Of a DNA stretch of 64,000 bases, positions 16,758 to 27,160 are shown piece by piece. The stretch comes from Affinundibacterium fentianense (lineage in GTDB: Bacteria > Pseudomonadota > Gammaproteobacteria > Burkholderiales > Burkholderiaceae_D), in the NCBI RefSeq assembly GCF_018139545.1, contig NZ_JAGSPJ010000003.1, positions 434,001-498,000 on the forward strand, given 5' to 3'. The translations under genes were made by a program, and so were the position numbers. The notes under the pieces are model-generated. The model made no database searches. It was not told the DNA's origin and was given only the letters and a program-made list of their open reading frames with translations. Positions within the stretch are counted from its first letter, which is position 1, and every line of letters starts with the position of its first letter.

Positions 16758-17210
16758 ATGTCAACAATGGGTAACGATCAAGAAATTTTTTTGCAAATTT
16801 CGGTAGAGCTGACCGGATTTAATTCTGCCGAGCTACTTGGTACTGGGATGTTGGAAACGTATTTCGCCACCGTACAGGAGGGAACAACAAAGGAGAACTT
16901 GGGGTTGTTCCTACAGGCCTCTGCTGAAATTTTGTCTGAGACAGATGTATCCACGCGAGAAACACAGATTGCTAATTTGTTGATGCCTGATTCAAGTTAT
17001 TTAGGTCTGGCGAAAAACATTATTTATATGTGGTATTCCGGCCAATGGGGGCCGACTGTAAATAGTCCCGATGCCAATTTGCAGGAGGTGCGCAATATAA
17101 GTCCTGAAGCGTATGTGCAAGGATTGATGTGGACAGCTGCGAATACACACCCTCCAGGAGCCAAACAACCAGGTTTTGGGTCTTGGGCAATGCCACCCAT
17201 TCGAACATAA
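16758..17210 (+). CDS. FAD-dependent sugar/sorbitol dehydrogenase small subunit-like protein (FAD-SLDH family)
   Basis: 150 residues with the family layout: an N-terminal helix with FLQISVELTGF, a central IIYMWYSGQW segment and a C-terminal YVQGLMWTAANTH...GFGSWAMPP motif. In characterised complexes (sorbitol, fructose and glucose dehydrogenases) this subunit is a chaperone-like partner of the GMC flavoprotein and usually carries a Tat signal that exports both. Here the protein begins MSTMGNDQE with no twin-arginine or hydrophobic signal, so the complex would stay in the cytoplasm. The start ATG follows GAGGAG. It lies 53 nt upstream of the GMC gene. Confidence 0.8.
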   Translation: MSTMGNDQEIFLQISVELTGFNSAELLGTGMLETYFATVQEGTTKENLGLFLQASAEILSETDVSTRETQIANLLMPDSSYLGLAKNIIYMWYSGQWGPTVNSPDANLQEVRNISPEAYVQGLMWTAANTHPPGAKQPGFGSWAMPPIRT

Positions 17211-17263
17211 GGACATTGTTCGGTAAAACAGCATTCACAACGTTGCGAAAGGATGAAAATAGA

Positions 17264-19132
17264 ATGAATAAAAATTACGACGTCGTCATCGTGGGAACTG
17301 GCATTGCTGGAGCTGTTCTCGCAAAGACGTTGACACAAGCGGGTAAATCCGTACTGATGTTAGAGGCTGGATTGGAGGCCGGTATCGCTCTGAATCCAGA
17401 ACGCGCCTACAACAATTACCAACAGTATTTACAAACCTTTTATAGCAAGGCGAATAAGGCGACTAACGGACCTTATCCAGACATCAAGGACGCGGAATCG
17501 CCAGACGTTCTAGAAATTAAAGCGCAAACACCGTACGACTCTGGCTATCTGGTGCAGATGGGACCACTCCCATTCGCAAGTGATTGCCTACGTGGTGCTG
17601 GCGGGACGACATTACATTGGTTAGGTAACGTGCCGCGTATGTTGCCGAATGATTTTCGTATGCAGAGTCTATATGGACAAGGCGTCGATTGGCCAATCAG
17701 CTATCAAGACCTCATGCCTTATTACGAAATGGCGGAGAATGAAATTGGCGTGTCTGGTGATGTCGACGCACAGCTCGGACCAGATATGAATCGCAGCAAT
17801 TATGGCCCAAACTATGTGTTTCCGATGCATAAAATCCCACAGAGCTATCAAGATAAAATTTGGATGCAGAACACTGAAAATTTGTCTGTGATACTTAAGG
17901 GAAAGCAGTACAACATTACGTGTGTAAGTATGCCACAAGGCCGTAATTCTGATCCAAATTTACGCTACCGATTTTCGAATGTGACATGGGATGTGTCATC
18001 GCAAAAATTAGTGCTGCAGTCGAGTAGAGTGATGTACCAAGTGACGGGATCAGTTTGGAGTCCATACAGCGGAGAACGATGCGAGGGCAACGCCAGTTGC
18101 GTGCCGATTTGCCCTGTGCAAGCAAAATACAATGCCTTAAAAACACTTAAAAAATCCGATTTTTCTAACTTGGAAATTCGTACGCAGGCGGTTGCTTCAG
18201 AATTGATTGTCGACGGCAATTCTAAGGAAATAACAGGAATCGTTTACAAACGGTACGAGCACGGCGATTCGCCGAGGTATCAAACTGAAATTGCGAACGG
18301 AAAGTTATATGTCTTAGCCGCGAGTGCCCTTGAAAATGCCAAAATCTTGTTGGCATCCAATGCTGCCAATTCTAGCGACCAAGTTGGGCGAAATTTGATG
18401 GATCACTTGGTATTGTTAACGTGGGGTTTGTTCCCAGAAAAAGTCTATCCATACCGCGGGCCTGGGTGCACCACATATATTCCAACTTTTCGCGATGGTG
18501 AGTTTCGCAAAGATTTTGCTGCTTGGATATCTCCGCTAGATAATTGGGGTTGGTCTTGGCCAACTTTTGCTCCAGGCACCGATGTACAGAATGCATTGAA
18601 CCGCAATCTATTTGGCCAACAATTACGTGATTTTATTAATGATCGGGTAACACGCCAGGCATTATTGCACTTTGAATGTGAACAAGCCCCTGAGCAATCT
18701 AATCGGATGACGATTGATCCTCGTTATAAAGACCAGCTCGATAACTATCGACCAGTTATTCATTATGATGCCTCCGCATATATGCGCAAGTCATTTGAAG
18801 CGGCGAAAACCGTATCAGATCAGATTTTTGCTGCGAATCGAATCGAGGATTACACCGAGTACAAGCCAAGTGATGCTGATTATGTGATATGGGAGGGGCG
18901 AGGGTATACCTTCCGAGGTGCTGGACATATTGTCGGTACGCATCGTATGGGTAACGATCCTTCTAGCTCTGTCGTCAAGCCGACGCAACAAACTTGGGAT
19001 CACCCAAATTTATATTTAGTTGGTTGTGGAAACATGCCAACACTGGGAACTTCTAATCCAACTCTGACAATGACGGCGCTTACATTTATGGCGGCCGAAA
19101 ATATTCTTCAACATCTTTCGGAGACTGTATGA
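17264..19132 (+). CDS. GMC-family FAD oxidoreductase with cysteine-cluster motif
   Basis: 622 residues from the ATG at 17264, preceded by AAAGGATG; a longer frame from 17129 would overlap the previous gene and is rejected. An N-terminal Rossmann motif GTGIAGAVLA (residues 11-20) binds FAD. GAGGTTLHW (111-119) is the GMC flavin loop. The C-terminus has GTHRMG (His 560) and TSNPTLT (Asn 598), the family's catalytic His/Asn pair. Residues 273-284 read CEGNASCVPICP, giving Cys273, Cys279 and Cys283, which matches the iron-sulfur site described in bacterial FAD-glucose dehydrogenases. It probably oxidises an alcohol or sugar. No cytochrome c subunit is encoded nearby, so the electron acceptor is unclear. 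It overlaps the next gene by ATGA. Confidence 0.88.
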   Translation: MNKNYDVVIVGTGIAGAVLAKTLTQAGKSVLMLEAGLEAGIALNPERAYNNYQQYLQTFYSKANKATNGPYPDIKDAESPDVLEIKAQTPYDSGYLVQMGPLPFASDCLRGAGGTTLHWLGNVPRMLPNDFRMQSLYGQGVDWPISYQDLMPYYEMAENEIGVSGDVDAQLGPDMNRSNYGPNYVFPMHKIPQSYQDKIWMQNTENLSVILKGKQYNITCVSMPQGRNSDPNLRYRFSNVTWDVSSQKLVLQSSRVMYQVTGSVWSPYSGERCEGNASCVPICPVQAKYNALKTLKKSDFSNLEIRTQAVASELIVDGNSKEITGIVYKRYEHGDSPRYQTEIANGKLYVLAASALENAKILLASNAANSSDQVGRNLMDHLVLLTWGLFPEKVYPYRGPGCTTYIPTFRDGEFRKDFAAWISPLDNWGWSWPTFAPGTDVQNALNRNLFGQQLRDFINDRVTRQALLHFECEQAPEQSNRMTIDPRYKDQLDNYRPVIHYDASAYMRKSFEAAKTVSDQIFAANRIEDYTEYKPSDADYVIWEGRGYTFRGAGHIVGTHRMGNDPSSSVVKPTQQTWDHPNLYLVGCGNMPTLGTSNPTLTMTALTFMAAENILQHLSETV

Positions 19133-20214
19133 GTCAATCGATTTTCCAATCGCATAATCATCACAAACGCCATCAATTGTTGGCAGTTGATTTGCCGCGT
19201 GAATTCGCAGGAACAATTACGACGATTGAGTCCTTGCGTGAACATTTGCAGACCGCTGTCGAACTAGAACATTCGACAATACCGCCATACTTATGCGCAC
19301 TGTATTCCCTAAAAAGTGGTAGCAATACTTTTGCCATGCAGACCATACAAAGTGTCGTGATGGAAGAAATGCTGCATATGATTCTTGCCGCGAACATTCT
19401 CAACGCCATTGGTGGAGCACCAGCGATGAATACACCTGATTTCATTCCTAAATATCCTACCTATTTGCCTCATAGTGACGATGCTTTTCTTGTATCTCTA
19501 GGAAAATTTTCACCTGCGACTGTGGATACTTTTTTACAAATTGAGCATCCTGCACCAGAAGGTGCGCCGCCTGAAGCCGATCATTACGCGACAATAGGTC
19601 AGTTTTATTCTGCTATCAAACATGCGTTGCGGTATTTGGATCACATAACACCAGGCGGCATTTTCACTGGTGATGTCCAACGCCAAATAAGTGCGCAACA
19701 TTACTACGGTGGTGGCGGAAAATTGCTAGCCGTAACTTGCCTTGATGACGCGATCTTGGCGATCAACGAAATTATCGGTCAGGGCGAAGGAATCAATGGA
19801 ACGATTATGGATAGCGATCACAGATTTTTTGGTGAGGAGATCGAATACGCCCATTTTTTTAAATATAAAGAACTGCAAGCAGGGCGCCGCTATTTGCCGA
19901 CAGATAAAGCAAATGCGCCGCCAACTGGACCTGCTGTCGAGATCGATTGGAATGCGGTTTACGACATGCAAGATAATCCGAAAATGGGTGACTACGAAAA
20001 GGGCTCAGAAATTTGGACCAAAACATTTGCTTTCAATCGTACTTATATGCAGTTACTCAATCAATTGCATGATGCATGTAATGGCAAACCGGAAAGTTTA
20101 AGGCAAGCCATTCCTTTGATGTATGACTTGAAATATAAGGCGATGGAATTGATGCAGATTCCGACGCCGAATGGAAAGATGGCTGGACCGAGCTTCGAGT
20201 ATGTTCCTTTGTGA
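19129..20214 (+). CDS. Ferritin-like protein of the VioB/RebD iminophenyl-pyruvate dimer synthase type
   Basis: 361 residues. The N-terminal half carries ferritin-like metal motifs ELEHSTIPPY (residues 45-54) and VMEEMLHM (77-84), with a later EEIEYAHFFKY segment able to complete a diiron or single-iron site. The domain matches the ferritin-like family seen in VioB, RebD and StaD, which couple imino acids in violacein and rebeccamycin synthesis, but many stand-alone members have unknown substrates. The start overlaps the stop of the GMC gene by 4 nt (ATGA), implying translational coupling and a shared pathway. No signal peptide is visible. Substrate unknown. Confidence 0.78.
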   Translation: MSQSIFQSHNHHKRHQLLAVDLPREFAGTITTIESLREHLQTAVELEHSTIPPYLCALYSLKSGSNTFAMQTIQSVVMEEMLHMILAANILNAIGGAPAMNTPDFIPKYPTYLPHSDDAFLVSLGKFSPATVDTFLQIEHPAPEGAPPEADHYATIGQFYSAIKHALRYLDHITPGGIFTGDVQRQISAQHYYGGGGKLLAVTCLDDAILAINEIIGQGEGINGTIMDSDHRFFGEEIEYAHFFKYKELQAGRRYLPTDKANAPPTGPAVEIDWNAVYDMQDNPKMGDYEKGSEIWTKTFAFNRTYMQLLNQLHDACNGKPESLRQAIPLMYDLKYKAMELMQIPTPNGKMAGPSFEYVPL

Positions 20215-20286
20215 TGTTTTTCAGACGAAGTAAATTTTTGTTTTTTTACTTTCTTTAGTTTCTTAATCCATATTGGGAGTTAAGCT

Positions 20287-21222
20287 ATGTTATCGAATGC
20301 GATTGACCTAGACAATTTACCTTTTCGTGTACAAGTCTTGAGTGAAGACAATCCAAGCACGGCTACGGCCTTAGGACCATTGGCAGGACTAGTGGGAACT
20401 TGGCAGAGCCAGTCGGGCGCTGGCTGGAACGTGATTGCGGTGCCGGCTACGTTTCCTAGTGAGCAAAATGATCAGGGCTTTTGTTTGGAAGTCATTCCTT
20501 ATTTAGAAACACTGCGATTTCAAGCAGCAGTCATTGTTGCAGGTAATCGCGGGCCTGTAGTTGGAGGAGTGCAGCAAGATCAAGTGATCACTGGTTTGAT
20601 TTATGAACAAACGATTACGAGTGACTGTGCAACCGACTTTTGTGCTCAACGGGGGTTTCCAAAAGGCAGCGAGATTCATAAAGAGACGGGTATGTTTCTC
20701 AATATACCCAATTTGAATGGTGGCTTTGACATCGGGCGTTTGTCGATCATTCCACATGGAAATTCTGTTTTGGCGCTTGGCAATGCATTTGTCAACGATG
20801 ATGGTCCTGTCAGCATTCCATTCGGCACAGCGTCAATCGCCCCGATTGGCGGAAATTTAGGTTACGCGGAAGGACCGCAGTTTACCGTACCTCAATTTCC
20901 TGAATTTAATCAATCCAATCCTAACTCCGTTCTGTCTGATGCAGTCAAAAATCAGATTCTGAATAAAGTCACGACTTTGGTGCTATCGACAAATAATGCA
21001 ACTGGGGGTATTTTGAATATCCCATTTATACAAAACAACGTGAATGCTGTGAGCATGGATTGCATTTTTTGGATAGAAGAGGTGCAAGATGGTGATGCAA
21101 GTTTCATGCAACTGCAGTATACCCAGACTGTAAATTTAGTATTTCCGCGATCGAATGATCCGCAGAAGACGCCGATTACATGGCCGCACGTCGATGTGAA
21201 TACGATGCGAAAACTTGATTGA
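20287..21222 (+). CDS. Putative heme-binding (nitrobindin-like) family protein
   Basis: 311 residues without a signal peptide. The start LAGLVGTWQSQSGAGWN (33-48) and the central HKETGMFLNIPN...IIPHGNSVLALG pattern resemble a bacterial/fungal family annotated as heme-binding beta-barrel proteins. The resemblance is recalled, not searched. An ATG follows GGGAG. It lies 72 bp after the ferritin-like gene in the same direction, across an A/T-rich hairpin (AAGTAAA / TTTACTT, 20228-20251) that may attenuate transcription. It probably belongs to the same oxidative pathway. A non-heme role cannot be excluded because no axial ligand is certain. Confidence 0.6.
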   Translation: MLSNAIDLDNLPFRVQVLSEDNPSTATALGPLAGLVGTWQSQSGAGWNVIAVPATFPSEQNDQGFCLEVIPYLETLRFQAAVIVAGNRGPVVGGVQQDQVITGLIYEQTITSDCATDFCAQRGFPKGSEIHKETGMFLNIPNLNGGFDIGRLSIIPHGNSVLALGNAFVNDDGPVSIPFGTASIAPIGGNLGYAEGPQFTVPQFPEFNQSNPNSVLSDAVKNQILNKVTTLVLSTNNATGGILNIPFIQNNVNAVSMDCIFWIEEVQDGDASFMQLQYTQTVNLVFPRSNDPQKTPITWPHVDVNTMRKLD

Positions 21223-22280: not shown

Positions 22281-23663
22281 TCAGCATGCGGTGTCTGAAT
22301 TTAACAAACTTTGACGAATCAAATCAGCGGCTTTTTTGCCGCTTCTTACAGCAGCTTCTAAGGTTGCAGGATAGTCACCTGTCGTATAGTCACCGGCGAT
22401 ATATATTCCCGGAATCGATGTTTGATTTGAGGGGCGCTGCAAATTGGGGAGACAGGAAAATGTCGCGCGTTTTTCATGTATGACTTTTGACCATTGAAAC
22501 TCAAGTAATTCTACGTTATTAAATTCCGAGGCGAGTTGGGCAGCGATGGCATGACTGAGTTCGGATTGCGTCAGGCTTTGCGCTGAATCCGATGCACTGA
22601 TGACCACGGCAATAAGGCCTGCTTGCGCAACTTGCAAATAGCTGCGATCAAAAACGAATTGACCCCAGTGCCCGATATCTGGGCGATCAATGAGCGCGAA
22701 GAATGCTCGATTCAATCGGAATGTAGGCGCGTACTGTAAGTAACAGGTTGTGATCGATTCAAACCGTAAGGATGTATCGACAGTTCTGTCATAGTCGGTC
22801 TTAATCTGTTGACTTTGGACGCCCGCTAATAGACGGCGGCTTTGATGGAAATTGGTAGCAATAATTAATTCATCAAACTCAAGGACCTCGCCGATTTTTC
22901 GATTGAGATCGGGTAATGTCCAACGCATCGAGTTACCTGGTGATATCGCGCGCACAGTGACGCCAGTCGTCACCTTGCCTCCGTGTGTTTCAATGTGGCG
23001 CGCGGCCGCGTTTGGAATGAGATTGCTAAGATCTACTTTGGGAATCAGCATATCCGAGGCGGCACGTTTTGCGCCTAAACTGTCTCGCAGGACGTTCAGG
23101 AAAATCTGTGCAGATGCACGCTCCGGAGGCGTGTTTAGTGCCGCTAGACACAAGGGATTCCAAAGTAAGGTACAAAGGTTTTGGGTTTGTTCGTGGATGG
23201 CCAACAGTTCACTTACAGAGCAATCATGGTTCAGCTTCCAATCCATCCATCGAGCCGAGGTAGAAAATCGTGCAAGTGATAATTTGTCTTCGCCGCTGAG
23301 CCCCTCGGCGTTCCAGAGCGCAGCCAACAGATGCAGCGGAGCAGGGAGACGCGGCGCGATAAAACGCATGCCAGTTTGCTTGGGATAAACCATTTGTAAT
23401 GGTAAGCGCAACATCGACTTGCCAAGATCAAGCTTTAGTTCTTTCATTAAACTTAAGCAAGCTGAATAGGCGCCCAACATGATGTGTTGACCATTGTCAA
23501 TTTGCATATCATGTAAATCGATACTTCGCGCTCGTCCACCTAGTTGGTTTGCGCTCTCAATCAAGTTGATCCGATGACCAAGTTGGCTTAGTCGCACGGC
23601 AGCAGCGCAACCCGCCCATCCAGCGCCAATAACCGCGATCTGACGGGAGTGTTGCTTAGCCAC
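22281..23663 (-). CDS. hpnE: Hydroxysqualene dehydroxylase
   Basis: 460-residue flavoprotein. The N-terminus has the FAD Rossmann motif GAGWAGCAAAVRL followed by ESANQLGGRARS, and the C-terminus has the second FAD signature IYIAGDYTTGDYPATLEAAVRSGKKAA. In the HpnCDE pathway HpnE removes the hydroxyl of hydroxysqualene to give squalene. The identity is supported by the directly adjacent hpnD, which overlaps its start by 8 nt. The family relation to phytoene desaturases makes sequence alone less specific, but the context settles it. Confidence 0.92.
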   Translation of the reverse strand: MAKQHSRQIAVIGAGWAGCAAAVRLSQLGHRINLIESANQLGGRARSIDLHDMQIDNGQHIMLGAYSACLSLMKELKLDLGKSMLRLPLQMVYPKQTGMRFIAPRLPAPLHLLAALWNAEGLSGEDKLSLARFSTSARWMDWKLNHDCSVSELLAIHEQTQNLCTLLWNPLCLAALNTPPERASAQIFLNVLRDSLGAKRAASDMLIPKVDLSNLIPNAAARHIETHGGKVTTGVTVRAISPGNSMRWTLPDLNRKIGEVLEFDELIIATNFHQSRRLLAGVQSQQIKTDYDRTVDTSLRFESITTCYLQYAPTFRLNRAFFALIDRPDIGHWGQFVFDRSYLQVAQAGLIAVVISASDSAQSLTQSELSHAIAAQLASEFNNVELLEFQWSKVIHEKRATFSCLPNLQRPSNQTSIPGIYIAGDYTTGDYPATLEAAVRSGKKAADLIRQSLLNSDTAC

Positions 23664-24516
23664 GTACGTAGGTTTTCCAAGCTAGCCAAAGCTTACGAAT
23701 CGGTGTCAGAGAAATTCGTTGCTTTAAGACTTGAAATTGATCGTGCTTAATTTCTTCGAGTAAGGCTTGGTAGATCGATGCCATGATTAATCCGGTTCGC
23801 TGTGAACGCCGATCCTCTGCTGGTAAGAGCGCAAAAGCTTCCGCGTACAATTGCTGTGTGCGTTCATATTGAAACTGCATTAAAGCAACAAACGCATCAC
23901 TATGACGGGCATTGAGTAAATCGCTAGCCGGCACATTAAACTGTTGGAGCTCATTGACTGGTAAGTAAATTCTTCCCTTTCGCGCATCCTCGCCAACATC
24001 ACGAATGATGTTGGTCATTTGAAATGCTAAGCCTAATTTTTCGGCAAATCGTTTTGTCTGTGGATTTTGAATGCCAAAAATACTTGCCGACATAATTCCA
24101 ACGACACCAGCAACGTGCCAACAGTATTTTTGCAGTCCAATAAAATCCAAGTATCTATTTTGGTTCAAATCCATTTCCATACCATCAATCACAGCCAACA
24201 GATGGGCTCCCTCAATTTGGAAGCGTTGTATATGTGGTAAAAGTGCTTTGGTGACGGGATGAGTCGGGTTCGCTTTCAGCATCGATTGAATTTCTTGACG
24301 CCACCAGATCAACTTGTTGCGGGCGACAGTTTCGTCGGTACAATCATCTACGACATCATCAACTTCGCGGCAAAATGCGTAAAGTGCGGTGATCGCTTGG
24401 CGCTTCCCTTGCGGTAAAAAAAGGAAACTGTAATAAAAACTGGAGCCACTTTGCGCGGCTTTTTCTTGGCAATATTCGTCAGGGGACATGCTGGTTTTGA
24501 GTTTCTGTGCAAACAA
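23656..24516 (-). CDS. hpnD: Presqualene diphosphate synthase
   Basis: 286-residue trans-isoprenyl diphosphate synthase. The first aspartate motif EVDDVVDD lies at residues 51-58, and the second region has RDVGEDARKGRIYLP, both needed to bind Mg and two farnesyl diphosphates. HpnD condenses these to presqualene diphosphate. It overlaps hpnE (8 nt), so the two are co-translated. Its partner hpnC lies about 1.8 kb away on the same strand but is separated by a gene on the other strand, so it must be a different transcript. Confidence 0.93.
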   Translation of the reverse strand: MFAQKLKTSMSPDEYCQEKAAQSGSSFYYSFLFLPQGKRQAITALYAFCREVDDVVDDCTDETVARNKLIWWRQEIQSMLKANPTHPVTKALLPHIQRFQIEGAHLLAVIDGMEMDLNQNRYLDFIGLQKYCWHVAGVVGIMSASIFGIQNPQTKRFAEKLGLAFQMTNIIRDVGEDARKGRIYLPVNELQQFNVPASDLLNARHSDAFVALMQFQYERTQQLYAEAFALLPAEDRRSQRTGLIMASIYQALLEEIKHDQFQVLKQRISLTPIRKLWLAWKTYVRG

Positions 24517-26344: not shown

Positions 26345-27160
26345 TTAACTGGACATTCGAATTGCACGCCAAAACATTATTGGGCCATCCAATTTTTGAA
26401 TGATGGGACGGTGTCTAAATACATCCATTCCCCTTGCTTCAATTTTTTCCAAGATGCGCAGCCCGCCTTGAATCACGAGTCGGAGTTCGAAGCCAATTCT
26501 TCCAGGTAGTTGATGGCAAAGAGGACTGCCTTCTAAGATCATTGCACGGGCTCGGCTGATTTCGAATTGCATTAATCGCTGCCATTGTTCATTCAAAATT
26601 CCTTTTGCGATGAAGGCGTCATCGATGCCAAAATGTCGCATATCATCTTGTGGTAGGTAAATGCGGGATTTATCCCAGTCAATAGCAATATCTTGCCAAA
26701 AGTTAATGAGCTGCAATGCTGTGCATATGCGATTGGAATTTTCTCGGTTCTTCGAATTGTCGGCTTGATAGAGTTGAAGCATGATTTGTCCGACCGGATT
26801 CGCGGAACGGGCACAATAATCAAGCAATTCGTCAAAATCACGATATCGCACTTGTATTACATCTTGCTTAAACGCAGAAATCAGATCGAGAAACGGTTGG
26901 AACGACAATTGATGTTTCGAAATAATTTGCTCAAGATCTTTAAAAAGAGGAATTGTTGTTCCTTTTTTACTTTGAATTTTATGCAATTCTTCTTCGTAAT
27001 TCGCTAAGGCAACGAGCCTCTCGGAAGGTTCGGCAGCTCCTTCGTCCGCGATGTCATCTGCGCTGCGGGCAAACGCGTAGATCACTCGAATTGCTGGCCT
27101 CAGATGCGAGGGGATAAGCCACGAAGCGACGGGAAAATTTTCATAGTGATCAACACTCAT
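26345..27160 (-). CDS. hpnC: Hydroxysqualene synthase
   Basis: 271-residue squalene/phytoene synthase family protein with aspartate motifs SADDIADE (residues 33-40) and DWDKSRIYLPQDD. HpnC converts presqualene diphosphate to hydroxysqualene, the middle step between HpnD and HpnE. The opening YENFPVASWLIP is typical of HpnC. It is divergent from the RND efflux genes across a region with two palindromes. Squalene-hopene cyclase is not in the window, so the final product (squalene, hopanoid or C30 carotenoid) cannot be told. Confidence 0.92.
   Translation of the reverse strand: MSVDHYENFPVASWLIPSHLRPAIRVIYAFARSADDIADEGAAEPSERLVALANYEEELHKIQSKKGTTIPLFKDLEQIISKHQLSFQPFLDLISAFKQDVIQVRYRDFDELLDYCARSANPVGQIMLQLYQADNSKNRENSNRICTALQLINFWQDIAIDWDKSRIYLPQDDMRHFGIDDAFIAKGILNEQWQRLMQFEISRARAMILEGSPLCHQLPGRIGFELRLVIQGGLRILEKIEARGMDVFRHRPIIQKLDGPIMFWRAIRMSS

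What the first reader, a model, noticed from the sequence alone, without database searches (positions are those of the whole stretch)
16758..21222. Cytoplasmic-looking oxidative module: FAD-SLDH small subunit, GMC flavoprotein, VioB-type ferritin and heme-binding-family protein
Known FAD-sugar dehydrogenase complexes use a Tat-exported small subunit and a cytochrome c subunit. Here the small subunit has no signal, no cytochrome gene follows, and a ferritin-like oxygenase-type protein is translationally coupled (ATGA) to the flavoprotein, then a heme-binding-family protein. This combination suggests a different chemistry: oxidation of a substrate imported via the TonB receptor or synthesis of a small molecule. 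I know of no characterised pathway with this exact set.
Basis: partly seen in the sequence, partly recalled or inferred. Interest (0 to 1): 0.72.

Follow-up and report, generated by a model that had tools for sequence, protein, structure and literature searches.

The report
Cytoplasmic sugar-dehydrogenase-type redox module
Four neighbouring genes encode an enzyme set that looks like a well-known bacterial sugar-oxidising complex moved inside the cell, where a ferritin-like metal protein and a heme-binding-family protein sit in place of the usual cytochrome; relatives keep the core set in distant bacteria, but its substrate and the role of the metal protein are untested.

Summary
The window carries a small subunit (16758-17210), GMC flavoprotein (17264-19132), PF12902 ferritin-like protein (19129-20214, ATGA overlap) and NF040572 heme-binding-family protein (20287-21222). 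The small subunit scores below Pfam's cut-off, but profile comparison ties it to exported FAD-dehydrogenase small subunits (hhalign 96%, E 2e-9). It has no signal and no cysteine. The flavoprotein keeps the FAD-linking His, three 3Fe-4S cysteines and active-site His/Asn of Burkholderia glucose dehydrogenase; no cytochrome-like ORF was found nearby.

Small-GMC-ferritin is a conserved module: 8 of 8 related loci where the contig continues (Oxalobacteraceae, Lysobacteraceae, Bacteroidetes). A rearranged version with IolE sits on rhizobial plasmids, six of which add the heme protein. The loop before the Fe-S cysteines is 27-61 residues in ferritin-linked relatives and 9 in exported enzymes and in two relatives without linked ferritin; one divergent locus breaks the rule. 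The own genome lacks IolE and PF01261 proteins.

Most likely: a cytosolic FAD/3Fe-4S alcohol dehydrogenase whose cytochrome was replaced by a dimetal ferritin-like electron acceptor. The electron route is inferred. Ten literature searches found no description. New variant of a known kind.

The parts
16758..17210 (+). Small (gamma, 'hitchhiker'-type) subunit homologue, 150 aa, no signal sequence, no Cys; C-terminal PPGAKQPGFGSWAMPP resembles the flavoprotein-contacting loop of the BcGDH gamma subunit
   Evidence: loop residues of BcGDH gamma from PMC6719666
17264..19132 (+). GMC flavoprotein, 622 aa: His118, Cys273/279/283, His555, Asn598 conserved
18080..18112 (+). Codons of Cys273 to Cys283, predicted 3Fe-4S ligands of the flavoprotein
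   Evidence: aligned to BcGDH Cys212/218/222 (ligands per PMC6719666); Cys in 25 of 25 aligned GMC proteins
18023..18076 (+). Residues 254-271, part of the long loop before the Fe-S cysteines; present (16 or 18 residues) in 20 of 22 window-type GMC proteins, absent in the two without a linked ferritin gene (L107, L109) and in three exported types
19129..20214 (+). Ferritin-like (PF12902) protein, 361 aa; candidate metal ligands Glu47, Glu80, His83, Glu139, Glu220, Glu239, His242
19129..19132 (+). ATGA overlap of flavoprotein stop and ferritin-like start
20287..21222 (+). Heme-binding-family protein (NF040572), 311 aa, THAP4-like by weak similarity; His131, His157, His301 invariant in 12 aligned members

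Best explanation
A cytoplasmic descendant of the periplasmic FAD/3Fe-4S alcohol (mostly sugar) dehydrogenase complexes, encoded as one gene cluster. The small subunit binds the flavoprotein next to its Fe-S cluster, as in Burkholderia glucose dehydrogenase, but no longer serves export. A hydroxyl of a sugar-like or polyol substrate is oxidised at covalently bound FAD and electrons move to the 3Fe-4S cluster. In exported complexes they go on to a multi-heme cytochrome c; here the overlapping ferritin-like gene product, with a predicted two-metal site, takes that place, docking at an enlarged loop beside the cluster, and passes the electrons to O2 or H2O2. The heme-binding protein is a looser partner, handling peroxide or relaying electrons. 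Shown here: the gene set, homologies, conserved residues, absence of signal and of a nearby cytochrome-like ORF, linkage, and the loop-length pattern. Inferred: complex formation, docking, electron route, metal content, substrate class, role of the heme protein.
For: Homology to exported small subunits over 123 columns including the C-terminal loop. FAD-His and three Fe-S Cys in 25 of 25 chosen GMC proteins; His555 in 24 and Asn598 in 23, the misses being sequences cut by contig ends, so an outside one-electron acceptor is still expected. BcGDH's inter-subunit disulfide is missing: Glu at the Cys213 position, no Cys in the small subunit. Between Asn228 and the first Fe-S Cys there are 27-61 residues in 20 of 22 window-type proteins (18 with a linked ferritin gene, 2 cut by contig ends) but exactly 9 in the two without a linked ferritin gene (L107, L109) and in 3 of 3 exported types; eight further ferritin-linked proteins added by profile keep the whole segment, five more all or part of it. 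No cytochrome-like ORF nearby. One GMC C-domain protein in the genome and no PF12318 match at E 0.001. Ferritin-like gene directly after GMC in 8 of 8 loci where the contig continues; 4-base overlap also in L073 and L078. Candidate metal ligands kept across 44 PF12902 rows with few exceptions. Sugar context in relatives: GH15, IolE over its cut-off, isomerase-like protein.
Against: No experiment, no structure model (structure prediction failed and was then switched off) and no test that the proteins bind. L110 has a very divergent GMC gene beside a ferritin-like gene with no small-subunit match and no long loop. Some rhizobial first GMC copies (L125-L128) have only about half of the segment. 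Relatives are not independent, so the loop pattern may reflect descent. G186 has small+GMC without a ferritin match, G154 has them on another contig from its ferritin, and 8 of the 14 ferritin-bearing sampled genomes have no small-family match. I see no conserved Glu at the helix-3 position of the ferritin bundle, so the metal site is inferred. PF12902 genes occur with quite different partners (VioB-type, LodA), so electron acceptance cannot be the family's only role. The substrate class rests on distant relatives; the own genome lacks IolE and PF01261. Heme-protein linkage in the sample is weak without the own genome (p 0.095).
Confidence: 0.48

Rival explanations
1. Product-processing (VioB-like) module: the flavoprotein makes a reactive carbonyl and the ferritin-like protein, a metalloenzyme, transforms that product (oxygenation, coupling or cleavage); the genes make or modify a small molecule.
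For: VioB carries the same domain and candidate ligands. Relatives of the window cluster lie beside tyrosinase (L073 by Pfam, L066 by 86% identity) or ABM, Dabb, berberine-type FAD and cupin proteins (L071). PF12902 genes also sit with LodA-type genes (L061 by Pfam, L112 by eye), and a paper reports ferritin-like genes near fungal lodA-like genes (PMC4417212, passages).
Against: The ferritin-like protein fails the VioB model (21.9 of 1250 bits) and, at 361 aa, lacks the VioB N-terminal half. I see no biosynthetic core gene among the four. Retained Fe-S cysteines suggest electrons leave the flavoprotein through a protein partner.
Confidence: 0.24
2. Peroxide handling: the flavoprotein is a true oxidase making H2O2, and the ferritin-like and heme proteins remove it.
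For: Ferritin-fold dimetal proteins include peroxidases and catalases (recalled). The heme protein shares a domain with FMP-type peroxidases, and the own genome has such a peroxidase elsewhere (584.6 bits). A DyP-type peroxidase gene precedes the GMC gene in Gloeothece.
Against: GMC oxidases that I know of need no small subunit or 3Fe-4S cluster (recalled), yet both are conserved here. The window's heme protein fails the peroxidase model (91.9 of 300 bits).
Confidence: 0.16
3. The window genes are part of the same IolE/isomerase sugar or cyclitol catabolic pathway as on rhizobial plasmids.
For: Trio plus heme protein shared with six rhizobial plasmid clusters.
Against: Own genome has 0 matches to IolE (TIGR04379) and to PF01261 at 99.4% completeness; rhizobial flavoproteins are only 42-44% identical.
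Confidence: 0.06
4. The complex is exported by another signal and uses a cytochrome encoded elsewhere.
For: None beyond ancestry.
Against: No upstream start or signal in the small subunit; none evident in the ferritin-like and heme proteins; flavoprotein begins at its Rossmann motif. The scan is crude: its hydrophobic-run test recognises only 2 of 4 exported controls, the RR/KR test 4 of 4.
Confidence: 0.03

Closest known systems
FAD-dependent glucose dehydrogenase of Burkholderia cepacia (BcGDH; PDB 6a2u) and fructose dehydrogenase (PDB 7w2j)
   Same: GMC fold, FAD-linking His, 3Fe-4S cysteines, active-site His/Asn, homologous small subunit with similar C-terminal loop
   Different: No export signal, no cytochrome c gene found nearby, no inter-subunit disulfide cysteines, long loop beside the Fe-S site, ferritin-like gene overlapping
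LacABC lactose 3-dehydrogenase of Caulobacter (PMC9007349, passages)
   Same: Three-component sugar dehydrogenase; sugar epimerase genes nearby, comparable to the rhizobial relatives
   Different: LacABC is described as membrane bound and acting in the periplasm; none of the four window genes is an epimerase. LacABC was not compared by sequence here
VioB, iminophenyl-pyruvate dimer synthase
   Same: PF12902-type domain and candidate metal ligands; flavoenzyme partner (VioA, recalled)
   Different: About 1000 aa with a large N-terminal half; window protein is 361 aa and its partner is a GMC/small pair
Glycoside 3-oxidases with C-deglycosidases (PMC10646112, abstract and passages)
   Same: GMC enzyme for sugars next to sugar-processing genes
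   Different: O2-using, H2O2-making oxidase; no small subunit or Fe-S cluster (recalled)
FMP-type peroxidase (NF040571) and THAP4-type heme proteins
   Same: Shared NF040572 domain; weak THAP4 similarity
   Different: Scores 91.9 against the peroxidase cut-off of 300

Membership tests
Exported FAD/3Fe-4S dehydrogenase complexes (BcGDH, FDH) | GMC catalytic subunit with FAD-linking His and active-site His/Asn | tested here: met
Exported FAD/3Fe-4S dehydrogenase complexes (BcGDH, FDH) | Three Cys binding a 3Fe-4S cluster | tested here: met
   Cys273/279/283 aligned to Cys212/218/222, 25 of 25; the cluster itself not measured
Exported FAD/3Fe-4S dehydrogenase complexes (BcGDH, FDH) | Homologous small subunit | tested here: met
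   hhalign 96.2%, E 2.2e-9; Pfam alone below cut-off
Exported FAD/3Fe-4S dehydrogenase complexes (BcGDH, FDH) | Twin-arginine signal on the small subunit | tested here: not met
Exported FAD/3Fe-4S dehydrogenase complexes (BcGDH, FDH) | Multi-heme cytochrome c subunit encoded alongside | tested here: not met
   control positive in 3 of 4 exported-type loci
VioB | Match to TIGR04492 over its cut-off, with N-terminal half | tested here: not met
   21.9 of 1250 bits, residues 71-235 only
VioB | Ferritin-like domain with conserved carboxylate/His residues | tested here: met
   Glu47, Glu80, His83, Glu139, Glu220 shared with VioB rows L119 and L120; positions 239-242 not covered in those rows; a third VioB locus (L121) was dropped because the script read a wrong frame
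FMP-type peroxidase | NF040571 over its cut-off | tested here: not met
   91.9 of 300 bits
NF040572 heme-binding FMP domain | Score over cut-off | tested here: met
   260.2 against 150 bits; heme binding itself not testable here
IolE-linked rhizobial cluster | IolE and isomerase-like genes present | tested here: not met
   0 matches to TIGR04379 and PF01261 in the own genome
Dimetal ferritin-like oxidoreductases | Bound dinuclear metal and O2 or peroxide reactivity | not testable with these tools
   ligand candidates only

The most novel reading that the evidence does not exclude
A soluble, cytoplasmic 'sugar oxidase chain': a GMC/3Fe-4S dehydrogenase that hands electrons, through an enlarged docking loop beside its Fe-S cluster, to a dedicated ferritin-like dimetal terminal oxidase instead of a cytochrome; a partnership I know of in no characterised GMC enzyme, found as an accessory module in proteobacteria, Bacteroidetes and a cyanobacterium.
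Probability: 0.33. Interest if true: 0.75.

Novelty: new variant of a known kind. Interest (0 to 1): 0.53.

Why it matters
The exported complexes are used in glucose and fructose biosensors. A natural soluble version with a non-cytochrome partner would show how such enzymes can be re-plumbed, explain what the small subunit does besides export, and give a first testable function to a group of PF12902 ferritin-like and NF040572 heme-binding-family proteins.

Tried and rejected
Rejected: naming the small subunit from Pfam alone (sub-threshold); calling the ferritin-like protein VioB or the heme protein a peroxidase; tying the module to the TonB receptor (not beside the cluster in the sister genome); transferring the rhizobial IolE pathway to this organism; judging foreign origin by base composition (GC of the four genes 0.44-0.46 against 0.444 for the window, uninformative, although only 2 of 43 genus genomes, own included, have the small gene). 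PDB profile search of the heme protein found nothing. Promoter and terminator scan was no better than shuffles. Phage search for the heme protein: no match. Paper searches returned none; 28, 65, 72, 97, 115 were short lists and 96 and 114 were seen only in part (20 of 80 and 10 of 36), none of what I saw describing the cluster. Longest-ORF listing of high-GC Lysobacteraceae loci picked wrong frames; positions there come from tblastn. In the ferritin comparison, second segments of L061 and L112 and the wrongly extracted L121 and L122 were dropped.

For that reason I raised the best explanation from 0.45 to 0.48 and the novel reading from 0.30 to 0.33 and lowered two rivals by 0.01. L117 was added as a cytochrome control.
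Full report
What is there. The window is stretch G000:C52:434001-498000 of a 4.23 Mb, 99.4% complete genome. The contig of the sister genome G406 is recorded as Oxalobacteraceae. Four + strand genes lie in the reported interval: small subunit 16758-17210, GMC flavoprotein 17264-19132, ferritin-like 19129-20214, heme-binding family 20287-21222. Gaps are 53, -4 and 72 bases. The ORF list starts the flavoprotein at 17129, overlapping the small gene; the ATG at 17264 agrees with relatives.

Identity of the small subunit. Pfam PF12318 matches at 15.4 bits, below its 24.2 cut-off; 11 of 17 aligned members match it at E up to 1, the best at 7e-5. A profile of the 17 (alignment A2) has as its best PDB hit the fructose dehydrogenase small subunit, E 0.0036. 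hhalign of A2 against four small subunits of the exported type (A7) gives 96.2% probability and E 2.2e-9 over 123 columns, including the C-terminal PG..W region. In BcGDH residues of that region (among them Pro156, Gly157, Phe158, Trp159, Ala160, Pro163) contact the flavoprotein near the Fe-S cluster (PMC6719666, abstract and passages). The window protein has no in-frame upstream start, no RR motif and no cysteine. Caveats: the check is a motif and hydropathy scan; hydropathy does not separate the groups, the hydrophobic-run test recognises 2 of 4 exported controls, and 2 of 17 relatives have RR in a possible upstream extension.

Identity of the flavoprotein. Its best PDB matches are BcGDH (E 2e-63) and fructose dehydrogenase. 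In the printed alignment BcGDH His105 (FAD link) and Cys212/218/222 (3Fe-4S ligands; roles from PMC6719666) align with His118, Cys273, Cys279 and Cys283; His555 and Asn598 stand in the regions of the BcGDH His/Asn pair (which residues form that pair is partly recalled). Numbers count from the ATG; protein P0002 carries one extra residue in front. Over 25 chosen proteins (22 of the window type, 3 exported type) these are kept in 25, 25, 25, 25, 24 and 23; the misses are L074 and L072, cut by contig ends. At the place of BcGDH Cys213, which bridges to the small subunit, the window has Glu; 2 of 25 have Cys. It is the only protein with a GMC C-domain match in the genome, and the genome has no PF12318 match at E 0.001.

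A loop that follows the ferritin gene. Between the conserved Asn228 and the first Fe-S cysteine there are 9 residues in the 3 exported-type proteins, 9 in the two window-type proteins without a linked ferritin gene (L107 of G154, L109 of G186), and 27 to 61 in the other 20 window-type proteins, of which 18 have a linked ferritin-like gene and 2 (L072, L074) are cut off by contig ends. L107 and L109 are about as similar to the window protein (41 and 43%) as the rhizobial ones that have the loop (42-44%). Thirteen more ferritin-linked proteins from L105, L106, L083, L111, L125-L128 were added to the same alignment: 8 have all 18 residues of segment 254-271, 1 has 16 and 4 have 8. Against this, L110, a very divergent GMC gene beside a ferritin-like gene, with no small-subunit match, has none of it. 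L117, exported type, has none. The pattern suits a docking site for the ferritin-like protein beside the cluster; shared descent could also give it.

The ferritin-like protein. PF12902, 206.5 bits. The nearest solved structure is 3hl1, named 'Ferritin like protein'. In 44 PF12902 rows from many contexts Glu47, Glu80, His83 and Glu139 are kept in all, Glu220 in 43 (Gln in L113), His242 in every row that covers it (five do not); Glu239 is replaced in several. The rows include two VioB proteins, whose aligned part ends before 239. The alignment to bacterioferritin 1nf4 puts Glu47, Glu80 and His83 on its E...ExxH stretch; that those bind iron there is recalled. On a FastTree tree of 44, the 21 proteins linked to GMC genes fall in a 24-leaf group that also holds two LodA-linked ones and one other, with weak support (0.47); the group of the window protein with Lysobacteraceae and Bacteroidetes members has 0.99.

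The heme-binding-family protein. NF040572, 260 bits (cut-off 150); FMP-type peroxidase NF040571 only 91.9 (cut-off 300). THAP4 similarity is weak (E 0.087 here; 6 of 12 members match at E up to 1, best 7e-4). His131, His157 and His301 are invariant in 12 members. Elsewhere in the genome a second member is a full FMP-type peroxidase (584.6 bits).

Conservation of the module. The one scan of 84,980 species genomes gave 11 loci; L075, a 36-residue match, was dropped. The other 10 have the small gene just upstream of the GMC gene. The ferritin-like gene follows in 8; in L072 and L074 the contig ends inside the GMC gene. The heme gene is within the stretch in 4 (L067 and L068, upstream on the other strand; L070; L071) and was not found in L065, L066, L073, nor in L069, whose stretch is short. 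Record titles: three Lysobacteraceae or Lysobacter, two Emticicia, one Chitinophagaceae, two other Bacteroidetes, one Oxalobacteraceae, one Janthinobacterium. L070 and L047 are the same contig of sister genome G406, with all four genes in the window's order at 64, 81, 74 and 74% identity. In the genus the small gene is in 2 of 43 genomes, own included.

Unbiased sample. In 398 genomes drawn evenly from the phylum the small family is in 7 and the ferritin family in 14, 6 shared; hypergeometric 3.9e-9, or 9.5e-8 without the own genome. By coordinates they lie within about 5 kb in 5 of the 7 (G000, G043, G253, G133, G362). G154 has small+GMC on one contig and a ferritin-like gene beside a 648-aa partner on another; G186 has small+GMC and no ferritin match. 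Eight of the 14 ferritin-bearing genomes have no small-family match. The models were built partly from Rhizobium, so relatives in the sample are not fully independent. The heme family is over its cut-off in 4 of 398 (76 have weaker matches), 2 of them also in the ferritin list; p 0.007, but 0.095 without the own genome.

Annotated relatives. tblastn against plasmids: flavoprotein 503 records (many plainly other GMC enzymes), ferritin-like 167, small 109, heme protein 11; the last three are mostly rhizobial. I opened 22 regions. Rhizobium lentis and Sinorhizobium: GH15, GMC, ferritin-like, small, IolE, TIM-barrel, MBL hydrolase, ThDP enzyme; Pseudoalteromonas has these with GH15, MBL and ThDP genes divergent; Gloeothece has GMC, ferritin-like, small plus IolE, isomerase and a DyP peroxidase; Ruegeria has small, GMC, ferritin-like with 4-base overlaps. 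Of the 11 heme-protein records, 6 (L076, L083, L125-L128) have small, GMC, GMC, ferritin-like, small, IolE, isomerase-like and heme protein in this order, with GH15 ahead in 5 (the L083 stretch begins after that place); in the other 5 none of these query genes lies within the fetched flanks. IolE of S. meliloti is over its model's cut-off (299 against 290), the ThDP protein resembles decarboxylases, the isomerase-like protein matches epimerase models only weakly. The own genome has neither IolE nor any PF01261 protein, so the trio looks like a core reused with different downstream genes.

Other neighbours of close relatives: a MauG/CCP-type and a glucokinase gene (L047), tyrosinase (L066, L073), ABM, Dabb, berberine-type FAD and cupin proteins (L071), FAD amine-oxidase-type and DAO proteins (L068). 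They suggest oxidation of a small molecule but no single substrate.

How it probably works. The flavoprotein has kept residues for alcohol oxidation at FAD and for a 3Fe-4S cluster. That cluster's job in exported complexes is to pass electrons to cytochrome c (PMC6719666). Keeping it without a nearby cytochrome gene calls for another acceptor, and the ferritin-like protein is the most constant neighbour, with a loop beside the cluster that is long where it is linked. I therefore favour substrate to FAD to 3Fe-4S to dimetal site to O2 or H2O2, at 0.48. A VioB-like role on the product (0.24) or peroxide removal (0.16) remain open. All steps past homology, linkage and loop length are inference.

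Known or new. Ten searches of the open-access library found no description of the set; most subscription papers are not held, and two long lists were seen only in part. Seen in papers: PMC6719666 (abstract and 12 passages), PMC4417212 (three passages), PMC9007349 (nine passages), PMC10646112 (abstract start and passages), PMC13001252 and PMC6515984 (two passages each, not bearing on this). Two defining features of the exported complexes, the signal and the cytochrome, were tested and not met, so it is a relative and a variant, not a member.

Noticed in passing
L048, L049, L050 (three congeners): A 909-947 aa protein with the PF12902 domain at its C-terminus and a VioB-like N-terminal start lies next to genes that look like the ebo cluster (3-dehydroquinate-synthase-like, EboE-like, UbiA-like; named by eye). 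The Mycetohabitans plasmid L090 is annotated with ferritin-like, 3-dehydroquinate synthase, eboE and UbiA genes in a row.
   Followed up: partly
L058:7688-11815: In congener G430 a heme-binding FMP-domain protein, a PF12902-like protein and an MNIO-type enzyme (PF05114, 322 bits) stand in a row, a possible peptide-modifying cluster.
   Followed up: no
L061:4545-8935 and L112:7711-12012: PF12902 genes beside LodA-type genes (Pfam match in L061, by eye in L112) and LodB-like genes (by eye), with the heme-binding protein also present in L061.
   Followed up: partly
L064:9368-10546 (own genome, contig C56): Full FMP-type peroxidase, 584.6 bits to NF040571, a paralogue of the window's heme-binding protein.
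   Followed up: no
L047:5574-6914: In the sister genome a two-CxxCH MauG/CCP-type gene lies divergently just upstream of the small gene.
   Followed up: partly
L085:7335-9044: Bradyrhizobium plasmid with a ferritin-like gene after what matches only the C-terminal end of a GMC gene: perhaps a decayed copy of the module.
   Followed up: no
window 22281-24516 and 26345-27160: Minus-strand genes that look like hopanoid/squalene pathway genes (hpnE, hpnD, hpnC type, named by eye from sequence).
   Followed up: no
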